A stretch of DNA of 27,107 nt from a virus. Location: the IMG/VR virus record IMGVR_UViG_3300027762_000032, positions 1-27,107 of that record, one strand, 5' to 3'. Position 1 is the stretch's first letter. Each line of letters opens with the position of its first letter. Positions 4,329 through 13,680 of this stretch are shown one piece after another. The notes under the pieces were generated by a model. The model was not told the origin of the DNA, made no database searches, and saw only the letters and a program-made list of their open reading frames with translations. The translations under genes and the position numbers were made by a program.

Positions 4329-4445
4329 TTTAAATCCTCCTGTCATAAATATTTTGCATATTCCTTTTATCATTTTACACCTCATCGTTTTTTGTTTATA
4401 ATGTAAGTGAGCGATTGAATAATGTACTGCGTGATTAGTTTATTT

Positions 4446-4483
4446 AAACAAAAGATGGTTTGTCGGCTGTCTTTTGTTTTTTT
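4446..4483. terminator. Hairpin with T-run on the plus side
   Basis: AAACAAAAGA (4446-4455) pairs with TCTTTTGTTT (4470-4479) around a 14-base loop. On the plus strand it is followed by T to 4483, so it is a better terminator for rightward antisense transcripts. On the minus strand, following the gene that ends at 4489, the downstream bases are only moderately T-rich. Confidence 0.5.
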
Positions 4484-4488
4484 ATTAA

Positions 4489-4701
4489 TTAAACCCTTTC
4501 AGGCCAATTCCAATGTCCACCTAATGTACCCTGTTTAACTTTTTGATTTAAAAATATTCCTGTTGGATTCATTACAAATAAATCAACTTCATAATCGTTA
4601 TGTACTGCTGTTATAATTGCTGCCCTTGCTTCGCTTTTAAATTCTCCATTTGGGGTTCCATAACTAAAATAATGTACTATTCTTCCTATTGTTGGTTTCA
4701 T
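4489..4701 (-). CDS. Conserved small phage protein (KPTIGRIVHY / HWNWPERV type)
   Basis: 70 residues from ATG 4701, which has GGAGGTG five bases upstream. It starts MKPTIGRIVHYFSYGTPNGE and ends GTLGGHWNWPERV, with FVMNPTGIF in the middle. This arrangement recurs in small, functionally unassigned proteins of many Firmicutes and actinobacterial phages. It is probably a compact beta-barrel. Its upstream region is a 20-bp tandem repeat carrying extra copies of its ribosome site. Confidence 0.7.
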   Translation of the reverse strand: MKPTIGRIVHYFSYGTPNGEFKSEARAAIITAVHNDYEVDLFVMNPTGIFLNQKVKQGTLGGHWNWPERV

Positions 4702-4707
4702 TTTTTC

Positions 4708-4760
4708 ACCTCCACACAAATTTAACTATCTCCACACAAATTTCACTACCTCCACGCATA
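4708..4760. repeat. 20-bp tandem repeat containing ribosome-site copies
   Basis: Units at 4711-4730 and 4731-4750 differ at two positions, and a partial third begins at 4751. On the minus strand each unit carries GTGGAG(G/A)T, so the leader of the gene at 4489-4701 contains three Shine-Dalgarno-like cores in tandem. Only the last is near an ATG. Confidence 0.75.
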
Positions 4761-4838
4761 CATGCATCTTAATTTTTACTTAGACGCATTTTTTATGATT
4801 ATTGCAACGATAAATGCAATAATCGTTGTATTTCACGA

Positions 4839-5024
4839 TTAAACCTTGTTTGTCCCAGTTTGTCCTGTTTTGTCCTGTTCTGTCCGTTCAAGTAAATTCA
4901 ATATCCTATTCATACTAATTGTCAGTTGATAATCAATTTCAGCTAGCTGTTTCATATCTTTACTAATTTCAACTATATCTTCTTGTAGCATTTTAATGCT
5001 GTTTTCTATTTCATAATTTGTCAT
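4839..5024 (-). CDS. Small coiled-coil protein with repeat-encoded tail
   Basis: 61 residues from ATG 5024, which has GGAGG six bases upstream and overlaps the preceding gene by 14 bases. The body (IENSIKMLQEDIVEISKDMK, then ISMNRILNLLE) is an amphipathic helix with heptad spacing. The C-terminal tail RTEQDKTGQTGTNKV is encoded by four tandem 10-bp repeats and is hydrophilic. Family unknown. Confidence 0.6.
   Translation of the reverse strand: MTNYEIENSIKMLQEDIVEISKDMKQLAEIDYQLTISMNRILNLLERTEQDKTGQTGTNKV
4847..4885. repeat. 10-bp minisatellite in the 3' end of a small gene
   Basis: On the minus strand four 10-mers begin with GGACA (GGACAGAACA, GGACAAAACA, GGACAAACTG, GGACAAACAA). The period is not a multiple of three, so each repeat encodes different residues; change in copy number would shift the frame and the stop. 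Confidence 0.7.
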
Positions 5025-5250
5025 TGTTGACCTCCAAATCAAGTTTATTTATTTCAGCTAATTGCTTTTCATACAAAGCTTTTTTATCTGCAATCTTTAT
5101 TCTTGTTTTTCTATTCAAGTCCCTTAACAAATTTAAGGTAGCTTTTCTTTCTTCAATCCAATCACGTTCAAATTCAATCTTCTTTTTTAAGTCATCCGCA
5201 TGGGCTTCCAGTCTTATTAATTCAATAAGTGTTTTTTGATAGTCACTCAT
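5011..5250 (-). CDS. Small coiled-coil protein
   Basis: 79 residues, almost wholly helical and charged (LIRLEAHADDLKKKIEFERD, then LYEKQLAEINKLDLEVNN). ATG 5250 has GGGGG seven bases upstream and shares ATGA with the stop of the membrane microprotein at 5247-5324. No enzymatic motif. Possibly a structural or interaction partner; family unknown. Confidence 0.65.
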   Translation of the reverse strand: MSDYQKTLIELIRLEAHADDLKKKIEFERDWIEERKATLNLLRDLNRKTRIKIADKKALYEKQLAEINKLDLEVNNDKL

Positions 5251-5324
5251 TTTTCATCCCCCTTAAATAACAAAACAATACTAAATCCAATCCACCATAA
5301 CCCCACACCAATCCATCTAAACAT
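5247..5324 (-). CDS. Membrane microprotein (25 residues)
   Basis: MFRWIGVGLWWIGFSIVLLF followed by KGDEK: one hydrophobic helix with a short charged tail. The start is fused to the previous stop as TAATG, and its own stop is fused to the next start as ATGA, so it is coupled on both sides. This dovetailing is the best evidence that it is translated, since its own ribosome site is weak. Function unknown. Confidence 0.65.
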   Translation of the reverse strand: MFRWIGVGLWWIGFSIVLLFKGDEK

Positions 5325-5506
5325 TAGTCCACATCCCTGCCAGTCATTGCCCATTCTTGACCCCAAGAATCAAGAAATGAATCTTTGTTGTCATATTCTA
5401 TGTAAATATAATTAAGTGCGTGGGATAGTGCATCTTTCAATCCTTTGATTTGCAATTCAAGAATTTCAATTTCATCCATCAGCTCATGTATTGATTTTTC
5501 TTTCAT
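5324..5506 (-). CDS. Small hypothetical phage protein
   Basis: 60 residues; ATG 5506 has GGGGG seven bases upstream and follows the regulator gene by 12 bases. The N-terminal half is a leucine/isoleucine-rich helix (IHELMDEIEILELQIKGLKD), probably coiled coil; the C-terminal half is acidic and aromatic (FLDSWGQEWAMTGRDVD). Family unknown. Confidence 0.6.
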   Translation of the reverse strand: MKEKSIHELMDEIEILELQIKGLKDALSHALNYIYIEYDNKDSFLDSWGQEWAMTGRDVD

Positions 5507-5518
5507 ACTTCATCCCCC

Positions 5519-6079
5519 TTATAAAATTTCACTGCCTGCTATTTTTACTGACATTCGCCAAACTAATCTATTTCTATGTCTTCTCACTGTCCTTACATCA
5601 CAATTAAATTTATCTGCTATGTCAAAGTCATCCATATCTAGCCAGTATCTATATTCAATGACTTTATACCAGCTATCATCCTTCACTTTGGTTAGTGCCT
5701 TTTCTAATAAGTCTAAATACAGCTTGTCCTTTTCTATTTTTGATTGCAGATGTAAACATTTGCTATCAATCATTTGTTGTTCTGTAAGCCGATTTTGTGC
5801 CATACAAACGATGTCTGATGCAGTGGTTTTATTCTTTATTCCTATCTCAATATTTTTAAGTTTTTCTTCATTTTCGATTATGTTTTCTTCTAAAATTTCT
5901 TTTGCCCTTAGCAAGTCTTCTGTTTCCCTAAATATCTTTTTTTTATCTGTTTCACGCAAGCTTACAGCTGACACAAAAGCCCTTTTTACCGCAGTGTCTG
6001 CATAGTATGGTGCAGATTCAATAACGATAGCTTTTATATAACTTTTTTGATTCTCACTCAAAACCTCGGCTTTTTTCAT
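5519..6079 (-). CDS. ArpU/RinA-type phage transcriptional regulator with sigma-70 region 4-like HTH
   Basis: 186 residues from ATG 6079 (GGAGG five bases upstream, one base after the thermonuclease stop). Residues ~60-140 form long charged helices. The C-terminus holds VIEYRYWLDMDDFDIADKF...CDVRTVRRHRNRLVWRM, a helix-turn-helix like sigma region 4, as in ArpU/RinA late-gene activators. Such regulators switch on packaging, head and lysis genes in Firmicutes phages, which fits its place near the end of the early region. The call rests on architecture and the HTH; the target promoter is not visible in this window. Confidence 0.7.
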   Translation of the reverse strand: MKKAEVLSENQKSYIKAIVIESAPYYADTAVKRAFVSAVSLRETDKKKIFRETEDLLRAKEILEENIIENEEKLKNIEIGIKNKTTASDIVCMAQNRLTEQQMIDSKCLHLQSKIEKDKLYLDLLEKALTKVKDDSWYKVIEYRYWLDMDDFDIADKFNCDVRTVRRHRNRLVWRMSVKIAGSEIL

Positions 6080-6080
6080 G

Positions 6081-6485
6081 TTAACCTCCAATTTGAATAA
6101 TTTTATCAAAGTCTTTTTCATACCACTTTGGCTTGCAGTTTTTATATTCCTTTGCATACCCTTCTTCTAGTAGTTTTTCATTGATATTGTAGCTGTCTGA
6201 ATATAAGACACCCAAATACCTGTTATACATATCTTTTTTAATCTTCATACTACATAAAAATATTTCTTTGTTTGCTAATTCCTTAAAAAGTTTTACCCTT
6301 GCAATCTCTGCTGCCTGTTGTTCTTTTTCTGTTTCACCTTTAAGTTCAGGTGTATCAATATCAGCCAGCCTAATAGTCCTTGTAATTTTTACATCAAACC
6401 CTAAATCGATTGTTACAATAGCTGTATCACCATCAATTACCCTTACCAATTCAGACTTGTACACATACAAATACTTATCAACCAT
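6081..6485 (-). CDS. Thermonuclease-family (SNase-like) nuclease, cytoplasmic
   Basis: 134 residues of OB-fold nuclease. Landmarks are VIDGDT (17-21), IRLADIDTPEL (38-48, with the catalytic arginine and glutamate positions R39 and E47), and MYNRYLGVLY with the second arginine R89; LLEEGYAK closes the domain. There is no signal peptide, so it acts inside the cell. ATG 6485 has AGGGGTG seven bases upstream. It follows repeat array A and is one base from the ArpU-like gene. Possible roles are degradation of host DNA for nucleotides or replication-associated trimming; the sequence does not tell which. Confidence 0.9.
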   Translation of the reverse strand: MVDKYLYVYKSELVRVIDGDTAIVTIDLGFDVKITRTIRLADIDTPELKGETEKEQQAAEIARVKLFKELANKEIFLCSMKIKKDMYNRYLGVLYSDSYNINEKLLEEGYAKEYKNCKPKWYEKDFDKIIQIGG

Positions 6486-6532
6486 TTTGATACACCCCTT
6501 TTAATTTTTGTTTTTTCACTCCATTATGATGT

Positions 6533-6891
6533 AATCGTTTAATTTGGTTCATTCTCCATATTTTTTAAGTCAAAATCTTTGGTTCAATCCACCTACTTAT
6601 AAATCAAATACTGTGGTTCATTCTTTGATATTGAAAATCCCTAAATTTGGTTCATTCTATATCCTTTTTATCTTTTCCCGTGGTTCATTCATGTTTATAA
6701 TATTTATTACACTTTGTTCATTCATATGTATCTTAGTCACTTAATACGGTTCACTCATAGTCCTTTTGATTCTCATAATATGTTTCATTCTTGTAATATT
6801 AGTGTCCTTATTCTTAATTCATTTATCTCCTATTAATTCAATATCTTTAATTCATTCTCTATTAATAATCTTCGTTTGGTATGATTCATTC
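6533..6891. repeat. Repeat array A: 11 copies of the GGTTCATTC box at ~33.7-bp period
   Basis: Boxes begin at 6546, 6581, 6615, 6649, 6682, 6715, 6748, 6782, 6816, 6849 and 6883. Four are exact; the rest differ by one to three bases. Ten of the eleven have TC exactly nine bases before the box. The last box overlaps the stop of the sigma-like gene, and the array fills the whole 404-base gap to the thermonuclease gene. No coding frame survives because the steps alternate between 33, 34 and 35. Copies nearest the sigma-like gene are the most degenerate. Confidence 0.95.
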
Positions 6892-7573
6892 ACTTTTTAA
6901 AATAGTCACCTATAATACTCCACTCATTGAAATCTTCATTTTTTCTGTCTTCCTGGACATAATCACTTAACAGTCCAGTAAGTTTTTTTAAGGCACATTG
7001 CTTTATAAAGCTGACATTGCTAATTTTCATTTTGTTCTTATCTGCAATTTCTTTTATTGATAAATTCTCAATACAGCTTTCAACAATTACTGTTAATTCA
7101 ATCGGTGTAAGTTCATTTATTGCATTTTCAAAGTCCATTTTTGACACATATTTATTAATATCTATTTTTTTATCTTCAAGAAAAATTGCAAATGTGTCAG
7201 TTTCTTCATTTATAGTTTTGTCGTATGAAAATACACCCTTTCTTTTTTTGTAATCTTTTTGCATGTAGTACATTAATTTATATTTAATGTTGATGTATAA
7301 ATAAGTTGTAAATGTTTCATAGGTTTCTTTATTCAATTTATTTAGTGTTTTTATAACTATTTCAATTCCACAACTTATTAAATCATCAAGCTGATCTGGG
7401 TAATGGTATATGTGTTTTCTAGCTATATATATAATCAGGTACACGCTCCTGGCCACAAATTCATCTTTAGCCTGTTGGTCACCTGCTAGGATTTTGTCAT
7501 AATAGGGTATAAGTTCATCTTTTTGCAATGAAGTAAGTCCATTTTCTTTTAATGTTCTAATTAATTCTGTCAT
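6890..7573 (-). CDS. Sigma-70-family-like factor
   Basis: 227 residues. Region 2-like helix: YPDQLDDLISCGIEIVIKTL at ~58-77, preceded by ARSVYLIIYIARKHI. Region 4-like HTH: INELTPIELTVIVESCIENL, then SIKEIADKNKMKISNVSFIK at ~155-193. This is the architecture of short sigma factors and of phage sigma-like regulators. ATG 7573 has GAGG seven bases upstream. The gene sits between repeat arrays A and B; the array boxes touch its stop codon and come close to its ribosome site. It may redirect host RNA polymerase to phage promoters; whether it recognises the boxes is untested. Confidence 0.75.
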   Translation of the reverse strand: MTELIRTLKENGLTSLQKDELIPYYDKILAGDQQAKDEFVARSVYLIIYIARKHIYHYPDQLDDLISCGIEIVIKTLNKLNKETYETFTTYLYINIKYKLMYYMQKDYKKRKGVFSYDKTINEETDTFAIFLEDKKIDINKYVSKMDFENAINELTPIELTVIVESCIENLSIKEIADKNKMKISNVSFIKQCALKKLTGLLSDYVQEDRKNEDFNEWSIIGDYFKK

Positions 7574-7600
7574 GAAAATACCTCGCTCATAAATTTCTGT

Positions 7601-8497
7601 AATCTGTAAACTTGGCTCATTCCAACATAATTAAATTCTTTTTGTTTGTTTCATTTAATTGTTATGGCCGTCACAATATTTGGTTCAATCTTTCTTTTTT
7701 TTAAATCACATAGGATGGTTCATTCTTTTGTTTTTTATTCATCTTAATTGGTTCTATCCCTACTATTACGTAAATCATTAATTATGAATCATTCGCAGTA
7801 TTTATTAATCTTCCTCATTAATTCAATCTAATATAATTTAGTCATAGGCCTAGATTCATTCGTATGCCCTTTTGTTTCATCATCCTTGGTTCAATCGATA
7901 TATAATTACTCCCACATCATGGCTCATTCATCGGCTATTTAATCTGAATAGTTGATTCATTCTGTAATTATTAAATCTTTTGCAGTGGTTCATTCCTTCC
8001 CGCTTCAAATCATATTCCTTGGTTCAATCTTAAATATTAACAATCTTGCACCTGTGGTTCATTCGCTCAATTTGTTTTCAATTTCTTTGGTTCAATCCTT
8101 TTATATTTTTTCAATTACATTGGTTCATTCCTATACTATTTTCTTCAGTGGCTTCGGCTCATTCAATCTTCTTTAAATCCCATGATCTGGTTCATTCAAT
8201 TCCTATTTTTTCAATTACATTGGTTCATTCAAGTGTCGTGTTTATCTTTTGCCCTGGTTCATTCAGACATATTTACATCTCGCATCATGATTCATTCATG
8301 CTTTTTGCTTTTCAATTTTCATGGTTCATTCCATTATTTTTTAATCTTTGACTATGGTTCATTCTAATTACGTTTGAATCCAACCTTCTGATTCAATCCT
8401 TTTATTTTTATTCACTTTAAGTGGTTCATTCCAGATTCATAATTTCATGGTTTATGGTTCATTCACATTTCCTTATCTCATGTGATTTGATTCATTT
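7601..8497. repeat. Repeat array B: 27 copies of the GGTTCATTC box at ~33.7-bp period
   Basis: Boxes begin at 7614, 7648, 7682, 7717, 7750, 7786, 7820, 7853, 7888, 7921, 7954, 7987, 8021, 8056, 8089, 8122, 8156, 8189, 8222, 8256, 8289, 8323, 8356, 8390, 8423, 8456 and 8489. Eleven are exact GGTTCATTC and four are GGTTCAATC. Twenty-six have TC exactly nine bases before the box; 8056 has ten. Steps are 33-36. The last box overlaps the stop codon of the Transposase_20-domain gene, so the array fills the whole ~900-base gap. Bases 8104-8130 and 8204-8230 are identical, evidence of internal duplication by three units. Confidence 0.97.
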
Positions 8498-9362
8498 ATA
8501 CTACTTTTTTCATAAATTCATTAGCTTTTTTGAACACGTCATAAAACCAACCTTTTTCAACAGGTTCTTTAATTAATTCTGGCCTTTCTATCTTATGAAC
8601 ATGCCCTAAATGTGCTATGACATAAGGTGCTGGGGCAGGTTTTTTGTAATGCCATTCATACCAATATTCATGTAAGTGTGACAAAAACATTTTCACTGCA
8701 AATCTAGCAGCTCTTGCATTGATGTGTGCAGGTGGAAGCTTGCCAATACTGTAGTATTTATATGCTTCTGTATTCTTGCCCACTTGACTTTTTCTCACTT
8801 CTGCCAAATCTTTAAATGCTAATAGTTCATTTTGTTCAGTTTCCCATTCCTTTCTTTCCCTATACAACCGACCATAAAAGCTGTTTTCTTTATTGCTGTT
8901 TTTTATAAAACCTTGTCCAGCTTGCCAACAAATAGTCTTAAGCCTTGCATTCCATGGCCTTCTTTGTCCTTTTTCCCACTTAATGCTACTAACTAATCCA
9001 GCAAAGCTGTAAATGTGTCCTACTGTTGGTGCTTTTTCTATGTCTATGTGTGCCAACAAAGCTGCACTTACAACTGGTCCAATTCCTAACTGTTGATTCA
9101 TCCATTGGCCAACTGGATGATTAAGTGTGTAGTATTGCAAAATCTTTTTTATTTCTTTTTCAACTACATCAAATTGGCTTTCGTACCAGTTGAATAGTTC
9201 ATGTGGTTCTTTAGTTTTTGACATCATGTTTCTTTGGTTCCCTGACCTTACCCTTTGCTGTTGGATGGTGTAATAGTTATCAATAATCAGCCTTAATTCA
9301 TCTACATCAAGTGTTAGTGCTGCTTTTTTTATGTCTTTACTTAGCCTTTCAACAGTTTCCAT
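8496..9362 (-). CDS. Transposase_20 (IS110 C-terminal)-domain protein without RuvC domain
   Basis: 288 residues. The first ~85 are helical and charged, like the coiled-coil linker of IS110 transposases. GIGPVVSAALLAHI (93-106) and YSFAGLVSS (118-126) are the helix-hairpin-helix and following segment of Transposase_20; RRPWNARLKTICWQAG aligns with its next helix. The N-terminal DEDD RuvC-like domain is absent. Where IS110 enzymes have the catalytic serine (typically SSGG or SG after AGLVP), this protein reads IKWEKG, so the serine appears lost. No element ends flank it, so it is a phage gene rather than an insertion sequence, perhaps kept for DNA or RNA binding. ATG 9362 follows GGGGGG. It lies immediately upstream of array B in the direction of transcription. 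Confidence 0.75.
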   Translation of the reverse strand: METVERLSKDIKKAALTLDVDELRLIIDNYYTIQQQRVRSGNQRNMMSKTKEPHELFNWYESQFDVVEKEIKKILQYYTLNHPVGQWMNQQLGIGPVVSAALLAHIDIEKAPTVGHIYSFAGLVSSIKWEKGQRRPWNARLKTICWQAGQGFIKNSNKENSFYGRLYRERKEWETEQNELLAFKDLAEVRKSQVGKNTEAYKYYSIGKLPPAHINARAARFAVKMFLSHLHEYWYEWHYKKPAPAPYVIAHLGHVHKIERPELIKEPVEKGWFYDVFKKANEFMKKVV

Positions 9363-9370
9363 ATTTAGCC

Positions 9371-9445
9371 CCCCAAATTAAATTTTTGTTATTAATTGAA
9401 AACTACATAGTTTTGTTGTTTGCCAAATCCCCAAATTAAATTTTT
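9371..9445. repeat. 17-bp direct repeat covering a gene end and a ribosome site
   Basis: CCCCAAATTAAATTTTT occurs at 9371-9387 and 9429-9445, 58 bp apart. One copy lies in the ribosome-site region of the Transposase_20-domain gene; the other covers the stop of the preceding gene. It looks like a local duplication that created the 73-base spacer. Confidence 0.7.
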
Positions 9446-9693
9446 TCTTCTAATCTCAAAAACTGCGTAAAACTTATATTCTTTTGTCTACAGTAGTAAT
9501 AAAGTTTAGACCATACCAACTTGCCCCCACCGATCCCCTTTGTGATAAATTTATGCAAGTGACTATTTTCAATACCCATATCCTTTGAAAACTTTGTGAA
9601 ACTACCTTCATATTTGTATTTGCACCACTTACGCATATAATCCCTATCAATTTCAATTTCAACGTCATTTACATCATGTTCAAAAGTAATCAT
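9436..9693 (-). CDS. Small HTH-like phage protein
   Basis: 85 residues. The N-terminus is acidic (FEHDVNDVEIEIDRDY). The middle (FTKFSKDMGIENSHLHKFIT) reads as a helix-turn-helix, followed by WSKLYYYCRQKNISFTQFLRL, as in small phage DNA-binding proteins. ATG 9693 has GGGGAG seven bases upstream and overlaps the RusA gene by 14 bases. Target unknown. Confidence 0.55.
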   Translation of the reverse strand: MITFEHDVNDVEIEIDRDYMRKWCKYKYEGSFTKFSKDMGIENSHLHKFITKGIGGGKLVWSKLYYYCRQKNISFTQFLRLEEKI

Positions 9694-11535: not shown

Positions 11536-12336
11536 TTAGTCTAGGTCTTTGTGGTCTGGCCATTCCCAATCATCAGTGACTTCTTTGTACATGCTTTTTT
11601 CTGGCGAATCTTTCGACTTGTTACTTTTCTTTTTATTAAATTCTTTTTTTAGTGATTTATAATCATCAAGGGTTTTGATGCTGTCTGCTTGTAAGTTTAG
11701 TAAAGCCTGTTGGACCCATGCCCAATTTCTTTTATTTTGTTCGATTGCTTCTTTCATCTTTTGAATTATAAGATCTTCTTCTACCCCATCATCAATAAAA
11801 TGTTTGATGTTGTCTGCCATGTGTGGTGTGATTGCACCAAAGTTGTCATTATAAAATTTTTCTGGTGTTACATACAATCTACTTTCTTTTAATTTACTTT
11901 CATTTACTTTACTTTCATTTACTTTGTTATGTTTTGTTATAACACTGTTATTTTTTGTTATAACACTGTTATTATTTACCCATCTGGACTGCATTCCACG
12001 TTTACCTGCTTCTGACTTCAAACTTCTTTTTTGTTCTAATATTTGCTTGTTTTTTAGTACCCTATCACTCCAATATTTAATGTCATCTGTAACAAATAAT
12101 TCTATTGATATAGCTTCGTTATAGAATTGTTTTAACAGTGTTATATCAACGTTAAAACCTAAAGATAATCCTTCTAATAAAGCACAAGTTAATTTACCAT
12201 CTGATTGTTCATGCATAGTTTCTATAAACAGCCAATATAAACCATATCCACCTATTCCAAATTTATAAATAATATATTGGATTTTCTCATCATGTCTGGC
12301 ATTGCTATCGTGCGGGAAATAATATGCATCTTTCAT
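11536..12336 (-). CDS. Phage replication initiator / helicase-loader-type protein (DUF4373-like)
   Basis: 266 residues. The start KDAYYFPHDSNARHDEKIQY, then GIGGYGLYWLFIETMHEQ, matches the Lin1244/Lin1753-like (DUF4373) N-terminal domain, a winged-helix type found in Firmicutes phage initiators. A low-complexity linker (NNNSVITKNNSVITK, then VNESKVNESK) is encoded by tandem DNA repeats. The C-terminal part (YNDNFGAITPHMADNIKHFI) resembles the DnaD C-terminal domain. ATG 12336 has AGGGGTG upstream. Expected role: bind the origin, probably within its own gene, and recruit DnaB from the next gene. Confidence 0.8.
   Translation of the reverse strand: MKDAYYFPHDSNARHDEKIQYIIYKFGIGGYGLYWLFIETMHEQSDGKLTCALLEGLSLGFNVDITLLKQFYNEAISIELFVTDDIKYWSDRVLKNKQILEQKRSLKSEAGKRGMQSRWVNNNSVITKNNSVITKHNKVNESKVNESKLKESRLYVTPEKFYNDNFGAITPHMADNIKHFIDDGVEEDLIIQKMKEAIEQNKRNWAWVQQALLNLQADSIKTLDDYKSLKKEFNKKKSNKSKDSPEKSMYKEVTDDWEWPDHKDLD
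11885..11973. repeat. Iteron-like repeats inside the initiator gene; candidate replication origin
   Basis: AACACTGTTAT-centred units lie at about 11931-11952 and 11951-11973 (21-bp step, each with the near-palindrome AACACTGTT). A third AACAGTGTTATA lies at ~12133. Next to them ATTTACTTTC-type units recur over 11890-11925. Origins inside the initiator gene, marked by iterons, are usual in Firmicutes siphoviruses. The repeats also encode the low-complexity linker, so simple coding drift is an alternative. Confidence 0.55.
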
Positions 12337-12989: not shown

Positions 12990-13083
12990 GTGTTAGGGGC
13001 AATTGCCCCTAACTATCCATGCCTTGCAATGCCGAGCCGCGCCTTGCCGTGCCTTGCCTCGCCTCGCCTAGCCTCGAAAATTT
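12990..13083. repeat. Intergenic GCCNN-pentamer module, copy 1
   Basis: Eleven pentamers in strict register (13021-13075), nearly all GCCNN (for example GCCTT, GCCGC, GCCTC), end in GAAAATTTAT at the preceding gene's stop. A 9-bp hairpin GTTAGGGGC/GCCCCTAAC (12992-13000 with 13005-13013) adjoins them. Order on the mRNA: stop, AAATTTTC, (NNGGC)n, hairpin, ribosome site, next ATG. Far richer in GC than its surroundings. Confidence 0.9.
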
Positions 13084-13583: not shown

Positions 13584-13680
13584 TTGTTAGGGGCTAATCG
13601 CCCCTAACTGTCCTCACCATGCCTCGCCCCGCCGCGCCGCACCGCGCCAAACCTCGCCAAACCGCGCCCCGAAAATTTAT
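13584..13680. repeat. Intergenic GCCNN-pentamer module, copy 2
   Basis: About twelve pentamers (13611-13670: TCCTC, ACCAT, GCCTC, GCCCC, GCCGC and so on) again run into GAAAATTTAT. Hairpin GTTAGGGGC/GCCCCTAAC (13586-13594 with 13600-13608) has the same stem as copy 1 but a different loop. Same position relative to stop and ribosome site. Confidence 0.9.

What the first reader, a model, noticed from the sequence alone, without database searches (positions are those of the whole stretch)
7601..8497. Array units have a rigid two-part core and a flexible linker
In 26 of 27 boxes of array B and 10 of 11 of array A, TC lies exactly nine bases before the box (WWTC-N9-GGTTCATTC, often AATC or ATTC). 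Inside the box the TC at positions 4-5 and the T at position 8 never vary. The ~22-bp core is fixed, while the 11-14 bp between cores absorbs all the variation in step. That is the signature of selection on each unit as a binding site, with the two contacts about one helical turn apart, and not of passive repeat decay.
Basis: seen in the sequence. Interest (0 to 1): 0.8.

Follow-up and report, generated by a model that had tools for sequence, protein, structure and literature searches.

The report
Phage guide-RNA array for TasA protein
The repeats are not DNA sites for a protein but a phage-borne bank of 38 tiny two-part guide RNAs of the recently described TIGR-Tas kind, with an unusually short, stretchy middle piece and an unexplained transcription-factor gene lodged between its two halves.

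Summary
This is the anatomy of a TIGR array (tandem interspaced guide RNA, PMC12045711). The gene directly upstream (8496-9362, minus) is a nuclease-less Tas protein (TasA): NCBIfam TIGR_Tas 186 bits against a cut-off of 100, fold matches to TasH Z 19.7 and TasR Z 17.9. Of 86 relatives, 80 carry a same-strand array beside tas under a strict detector. The loop is at the loose end of the range seen, and a period of 33 occurs in 0 of 102 scored arrays. A sigma-70-like gene lies between the two arrays; no other record checked has that. No targets were found.

The parts
8496..9362 (-). tasA gene: 288-aa Nop-domain Tas protein without a nuclease domain
   Evidence: NCBIfam NF052498 186.3 bits, cut-off 100; PDB TasR 9mty E 1.6e-11 and TasH 21kl E 6.9e-8, 1.3e-19 and 1.4e-13 by profile; fold Z 19.7 TasH, 17.9 TasR. 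The match begins at TasH residue 66 and TasR residue 112, i.e. after their N-terminal nuclease parts.
7581..8497 (-). TIGR array B: 27 units of GAATGAACCA - 8 nt - GA(WW..)A 7-10 nt - 8 nt, ending in a truncated edge GAGCGAGG (7588-7581); its first edge overlaps the tas stop codon (8496-8498) by 2 nt
6514..6891 (-). TIGR array A: 11 units of the same kind, ending in a truncated edge GAGTGAAA (6521-6514); its first edge overlaps the sigma gene's stop codon (6890-6892) by 2 nt
6890..7573 (-). sigma-70-like factor (227 aa, regions 2 and 4) lying between the two arrays, same strand
   Evidence: NCBIfam TIGR02937 56.1 bits, cut-off 42.9; PHROG 351 E 2.5e-14; Pfam sigma regions 2 and 4 below Pfam's cut-offs
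6081..6485 (-). staphylococcal-nuclease-like gene directly downstream of array A (context)
   Evidence: Pfam SNase E 6.3e-13

Best explanation
The two arrays are TIGR guide-RNA arrays of a TIGR-TasA system carried by a temperate-type tailed phage. The minus strand is transcribed through tasA, array B, the sigma-like gene and array A (inferred: same strand, overlapping junctions, no terminator-like site found between 6300 and 9500). The precursor would be cut within the edge repeats into 38 guide RNAs of about 33-36 nt. In each, two 8-nt spacers are held by the box C/D-like ends of the edge and loop repeats in the two halves of a TasA dimer, and pair with opposite strands of one DNA site (geometry taken from TasR/TasH in PMC12045711, not shown here). 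Without a nuclease domain, TasA would bind and bend target DNA rather than cut it, most likely blocking transcription or replication of competing elements or tuning phage or host genes. The elastic 'linker' is the loop repeat, whose middle makes no clear sequence-specific protein contact in TasR, so its length and sequence can drift while both spacers stay at 8 nt. Shown here: gene identity, array anatomy, family-wide association. Inferred: transcription, processing, targeting, effect. The confidence given is for the identity as a TIGR-TasA system; for binding without cutting as the mode of action about 0.6.
For: Tas identity by curated model, solved-structure sequences, and fold: the rows for TasH, TasR and the IS621/ISCro4 bridge-RNA recombinases (Z 13.4-19.7) stand clear of everything else (below 8). 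80 of 86 fetched relatives have a same-strand array adjacent to tas with a strict detector; 3 of the other 6 have one with a shorter loop (L079, L085, L092). Relatives' repeats are 10 nt, begin GA, mostly end CA, and are separated by 8 nt, matching GAATGAACCA and the 8-nt spacers of the window. Arrays begin and end in edge repeats, the last truncated, as the TIGR paper describes. The RNA is not unusually folded (median unit z +0.46; arrays z +2.9 and +0.5), as expected of guides.
Against: The loop repeat ends in A in most units and not in the CCA/CA box C of the edge and of nearly all relatives, so one half-site is weaker than the known rule. Its modal length, 7 nt, is below the 8-12 nt described. 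No terminator follows either array. No target was found: in the window the best scores match swapped-spacer controls, and for 1,870 spacer pairs from all loci there was 1 full match against 0-5 in controls. L060, L073 and L086 have a Tas relative but no clear array. No expression data exist.
Confidence: 0.93

Rival explanations
1. Direct-repeat DNA binding sites (iterons, partition centre, or sites for the sigma-like or another phage protein).
For: Rigid core and near three-turn period; a sigma-like gene lies between the arrays; replication genes are nearby.
Against: The repeats track Tas genes in phages without a sigma-factor match over the cut-off (0 of 80 records). Relatives' periods range from 34 to 37 with spacers kept at 8 nt, and both half-repeats change sequence between loci while keeping the GA/CA ends. 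The arrays overlap the tas and sigma stop codons and share the strand of tas.
Confidence: 0.04
2. Stem-loop type TIGR array (the other architecture in PMC12045711) rather than a dual-repeat one.
For: The loop side is variable in length and sequence, as described for stem-loop arrays (passages).
Against: The edge is a conserved non-palindromic 10-mer and the units do not fold better than shuffles; the closest Tas relatives have dual-repeat arrays.
Confidence: 0.05
3. A decaying, non-functional TIGR array whose loop repeats have eroded.
For: Loop consensus 0.75, second lowest of 66 (65 relatives plus window); the 5' end of array A has imperfect edges.
Against: GA at the loop start in 36 of 38 units, A at the loop end in 33 of 36, and both spacer lengths kept while the loop middle varies: random decay would not spare these alone. 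The tas frame is intact and keeps the columns invariant in 40 sequences.
Confidence: 0.06

Closest known systems
TIGR-TasA dual-repeat systems (Faure et al. 2025, PMC12045711; Flavonifractor plautii FpTIGR as example)
   Same: Solo Nop-domain protein, adjacent same-strand array, alternating edge/loop repeats, two short fixed-length spacers, truncated terminal edges.
   Different: Loop repeat 7-10 nt (modal 7), elastic, reduced to GA at the start and A at the end; period mostly 33; 8-nt spacers (FpTIGR has 9, from 18 nt in all); arrays on both sides of a sigma-like gene; no terminator found.
TIGR-TasH of Salicola phage CGphi29 (SpTIGR)
   Same: 8-nt spacers (16 nt in all); the phage was also found by tblastn of the window protein; TasH fold matches at Z 19.7 (that the solved TasH is the Salicola one was not checked).
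   Different: TasH carries an N-terminal HNH nuclease that the window protein lacks.
TIGR stem-loop arrays
   Same: Variable intervening sequence in place of a loop repeat.
   Different: The window keeps a conserved edge repeat and has no excess of hairpins.
IS110-family bridge-RNA recombinases (IS621)
   Same: Related Nop-like domain (fold Z 13.5).
   Different: No recombinase domain, and an array of short guides instead of one bridge RNA.

Membership tests
TIGR-Tas system | Tas protein with Nop domain | tested here: met
   NF052498 186.3 bits, cut-off 100; fold matches to TasH/TasR
TIGR-Tas system | Array of repeated units directly upstream and/or downstream of tas | tested here: met
   Array B starts inside the tas stop codon; 80 of 86 relatives likewise have adjacent arrays
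TIGR-Tas system | Two short variable spacers of fixed length per unit | tested here: met
   8 nt between edge and loop in 36 of 38 units; 8 nt between loop end A and next edge in 33 of 36 units
TIGR dual-repeat array | Two distinct alternating 8-12-nt repeats, conserved within the locus | tested here: inconclusive
   The edge is conserved (10 nt); the loop keeps only its ends, 7-10 nt, mean column consensus 0.75
TIGR dual-repeat array | Box D and box C motifs at the repeat ends, covarying between edge and loop | tested here: inconclusive
   Box D-like GA is shared by both; box C-like end is CCA in the edge but mostly AA in the loop
TIGR dual-repeat array | Terminal truncated edge repeat | tested here: met
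   GAGCGAGG at 7588-7581 and GAGTGAAA at 6521-6514
TIGR dual-repeat array | Rho-independent terminator after the array (described as typical, not as required) | tested here: inconclusive
   0 terminator-like sites in 6300-9500 by a simple consensus scan; paper's wording
TIGR-Tas system | Array processed to unit-length tigRNA bound by Tas | not testable with these tools
   Needs RNA sequencing
TasA subtype | No HNH or RuvC nuclease domain | tested here: met
   288 aa; only a Transposase_20-like hit in Pfam; alignment starts after the nuclease parts of TasH and TasR
TIGR stem-loop array | Palindromic, hairpin-forming edges | tested here: not met
   36 units, median z +0.46
sigma-70 family (gene 6890-7573) | Score above the curated cut-off of TIGR02937 | tested here: met
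   56.1 bits, cut-off 42.9

The most novel reading that the evidence does not exclude
The sigma-like factor encoded between the two arrays is a working partner of the nuclease-less TasA: the tigRNA-TasA complex would bring it, and RNA polymerase, to chosen sites, giving guide-RNA-directed transcription switching by a phage. The analogue that suggests this, nuclease-dead Cas12f with a sigma factor, is recalled from memory and was not found in the held library.
Probability: 0.06. Interest if true: 0.9.

Novelty: new variant of a known kind. Interest (0 to 1): 0.52.

Why it matters
The natural job of nuclease-less TasA proteins is an open question in the paper that described TIGR. This phage offers 38 guides, a single tas gene and an unusual gene order in one small operon, so RNA and binding experiments on it would bear directly on that question. 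The elastic loop also gives a natural test of which parts of a tigRNA Tas really needs: here both spacers stay at 8 nt and the edge at 10 nt while the loop varies from 7 to 10 nt.

Tried and rejected
Targets: the window's 36 complete spacer pairs against the window (best match per guide: 1 at 15 of 16, 10 at 14; swapped controls 0.5 and 7.3 per 36), and 1,870 unique spacer pairs from all loci against 2.49 Mb of held DNA, both strands counted (1 at 16 of 16, controls 0-5; self matches no different). Both negative; hosts and most phages were not searchable.

Sigma as a standard TIGR partner: in the first 80 records searched, none has a TIGR02937 match over the cut-off (23 of the 80 have only weak matches at E 0.01 or better). 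Of 50 further records 7 do, the nearest 15.6 to 56 kb from tas. L060, L120-L126, L184-L194 and the genome loci L113-L118 were not put through this search. The window's own sigma and nuclease proteins had no relative near tas in the other 91 loci compared (phmmer; L126 was not among them). Genes sandwiched by arrays elsewhere are unrelated to each other: endonuclease VII, GIY-YIG-like, CI-like repressor, others unknown, so a sandwiched gene need not be a partner. Apart from tas and frames read from the arrays themselves, no neighbour family reached more than 8 of the 57 non-redundant groups.

The only phage-collection match of the sigma protein (H1, L032, 28.7% identity) lies in a stretch that encodes bacterial-type sigma proteins (my reading of the frames) and was dropped. 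The structure prediction of the sigma protein without an alignment was poor (pLDDT 44) and not used. Rfam: no match in 6300-9500. Plasmids: no Tas relative. The first pattern scan brought 23 loci; the 33-bp pairs there are isolated pairs, mostly in coding sequence, and only L006, L014, L015, L020 and L022 looked like arrays. In one search, 39 loci could not be scored and the chains with periods 30 and 32 (L154, L163) were not inspected, 65 arrays could be scored, and L120 and L126 were framed out of phase by the script.

Full report
WHAT IS THERE. Listing all boxes and aligning them on the minus strand gives 11 units in array A and 27 in array B. GA stands at +18 from the start of GAATGAACC in 10 of 11 and 26 of 27, the minus-strand view of WWTC-N9-GGTTCATTC. 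The step is 33 in 18 of 36 cases, 34 in 13, 35 in 4, 36 in 1.

THE HIDDEN SECOND HALF. Aligned on the next box, position -9 is A in 33 of 36 units (P about 9e-9). So the variable 11-14 bp is not one free linker: its last 8 bases have a fixed length and free sequence, and only the piece in front of them is elastic. The unit is GAATGAACCA (10) - spacer A (8) - GA(WW..)A (7-10) - spacer B (8). The two 8-base spacers show almost no information by column.

WHAT IT IS. A pattern scan for two boxes brought up other viral contigs in which a second, well conserved box alternates with the GGTTCATTC-like one every 18 bp (L020, L006, L014). L020 and L015 encode a protein like the gene next to array B (phmmer E 2.6e-90 and 1.8e-84). 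That gene, 8496-9362 on the minus strand, matches NCBIfam TIGR_Tas at 186 bits (cut-off 100), TasR and TasH in the PDB by sequence, and both by predicted fold: model mean pLDDT 83.8, TasH Z 19.7 over 210 residues, rmsd 3.2; TasR Z 17.9 over 185, rmsd 2.6. The entry 9mty is titled as TIGR-TasR. The alignment starts after the nuclease parts of both, and Pfam finds no nuclease domain: it is of the TasA type. Of PMC12045711 I read the abstract and outline, sections 4, 6, 7, 10 and 24, and found passages; [quoted passage not shown]

FAMILY EVIDENCE. Of 235 viral relatives 80 were kept (L033-L112) and 6 came from genomes (L113-L118). A strict detector finds a same-strand array adjacent to tas in 80 of these 86 loci; L079, L085 and L092 have one with a shorter loop, and L060, L073 and L086 have no clear one. 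Many contigs are near copies: of 92 loci taken together, 86 with a usable tas frame make 57 non-redundant groups. Repeats are GA.....CA of 10 nt with 8-nt spacers. Loop length varies between loci: 8 nt GAACATCA (L085, L120, L126), 9 nt (L079, L122, L125), 10 nt in most.

HOW FAR THE WINDOW IS FROM ITS KIN. Modal periods over 102 non-redundant scored arrays: 36 in 85, 35 in 6, 34 in 4, 37 in 4, others 3, and 33 in none. Mean column consensus of the second repeat is 0.75 in the window against 0.69 (L135) to 0.99 in 65 scored relatives, so it is at the loose end of a range and not alone. Only 60% of the 20 units that the script scored in the window are at the modal length; L135 (54%) and L077 (60%) are similar.

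OPERON ORDER. On the minus strand: tasA, array B, sigma-like gene, array A, nuclease-like gene. The first edge of array B overlaps the tas stop codon and that of array A the sigma stop codon; each array ends in a truncated edge just before the next gene's start. No terminator-like site lies in 6300-9500 and promoter-like sites are fewer than in shuffles.

MECHANISM. From PMC12045711: a TasR dimer holds a tigRNA whose two spacers pair with opposite strands of one site, and the loop repeat's middle makes no clear sequence-specific contact. That would explain why the loop alone is elastic here. With no nuclease, binding and bending without cutting is the likeliest effect (inference; the paper offers the same as a possibility). 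Targets were sought and not found.

THE SIGMA GENE. It is a sigma-70-family protein by TIGR02937 (56.1 bits, cut-off 42.9). Its place between two arrays invites the idea of RNA-guided transcription. The evidence is against a general partnership: none of the first 80 records has one over the cut-off, and the 7 of 50 further records that do carry it 15.6-56 kb away. Other genes, unrelated to each other, lie between tas and an array or between two arrays in L054, L072, L075, L087 and L105. The words 'sigma factor' do not occur in the main text of PMC12045711, 'sigma' not in the review PMC12385481 (found passages only), and a four-term search gave no paper; this covers only the held open-access library.

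VERDICT. A TIGR-TasA system, unusual in its short elastic loop and gene order.

Noticed in passing
L122, minus strand 4342-6640: A 231-kb phage contig has two TIGR arrays (9-nt loop) flanking two ORFs of 130 and 213 aa downstream of a tas gene, another sandwiched arrangement.
   Followed up: partly
L126 246-1150: A TIGR array directly follows a staphylococcal-nuclease-like gene (my reading of its sequence), while array A precedes one in the window; no relative of the window's nuclease was found near tas in the other loci compared.
   Followed up: partly
L054, L072, L075, L087, L105: Genes lying between tas and an array or between two arrays: endonuclease VII, GIY-YIG-like T5orf172, CI-like repressor, and unknowns.
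   Followed up: partly
relatives' spacers (1,832 unique): Spacer position 1 is poor in G (18%) and C (19%) and position 2 poor in C (17%) against 25% and 22% overall; cause unknown.
   Followed up: no
window 13021-13068 and 13632-13668: Short GC-rich tandem repeats (20 bp and 10 bp units) in an AT-rich genome.
   Followed up: no
window 4708-4755 and 11876-11977: Short tandem repeats of 20, 15 and 21 bp.
   Followed up: no
window 5519-6157, minus strand: A second sigma-region-4-like transcription regulator (PHROG 36) two genes after the sigma-like gene.
   Followed up: no
window 8122 and 8222 units: Two units share the whole edge, spacer A and loop (ATGTAATT GAAAAAA) but differ in spacer B, suggesting duplication of part of a unit.
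   Followed up: no
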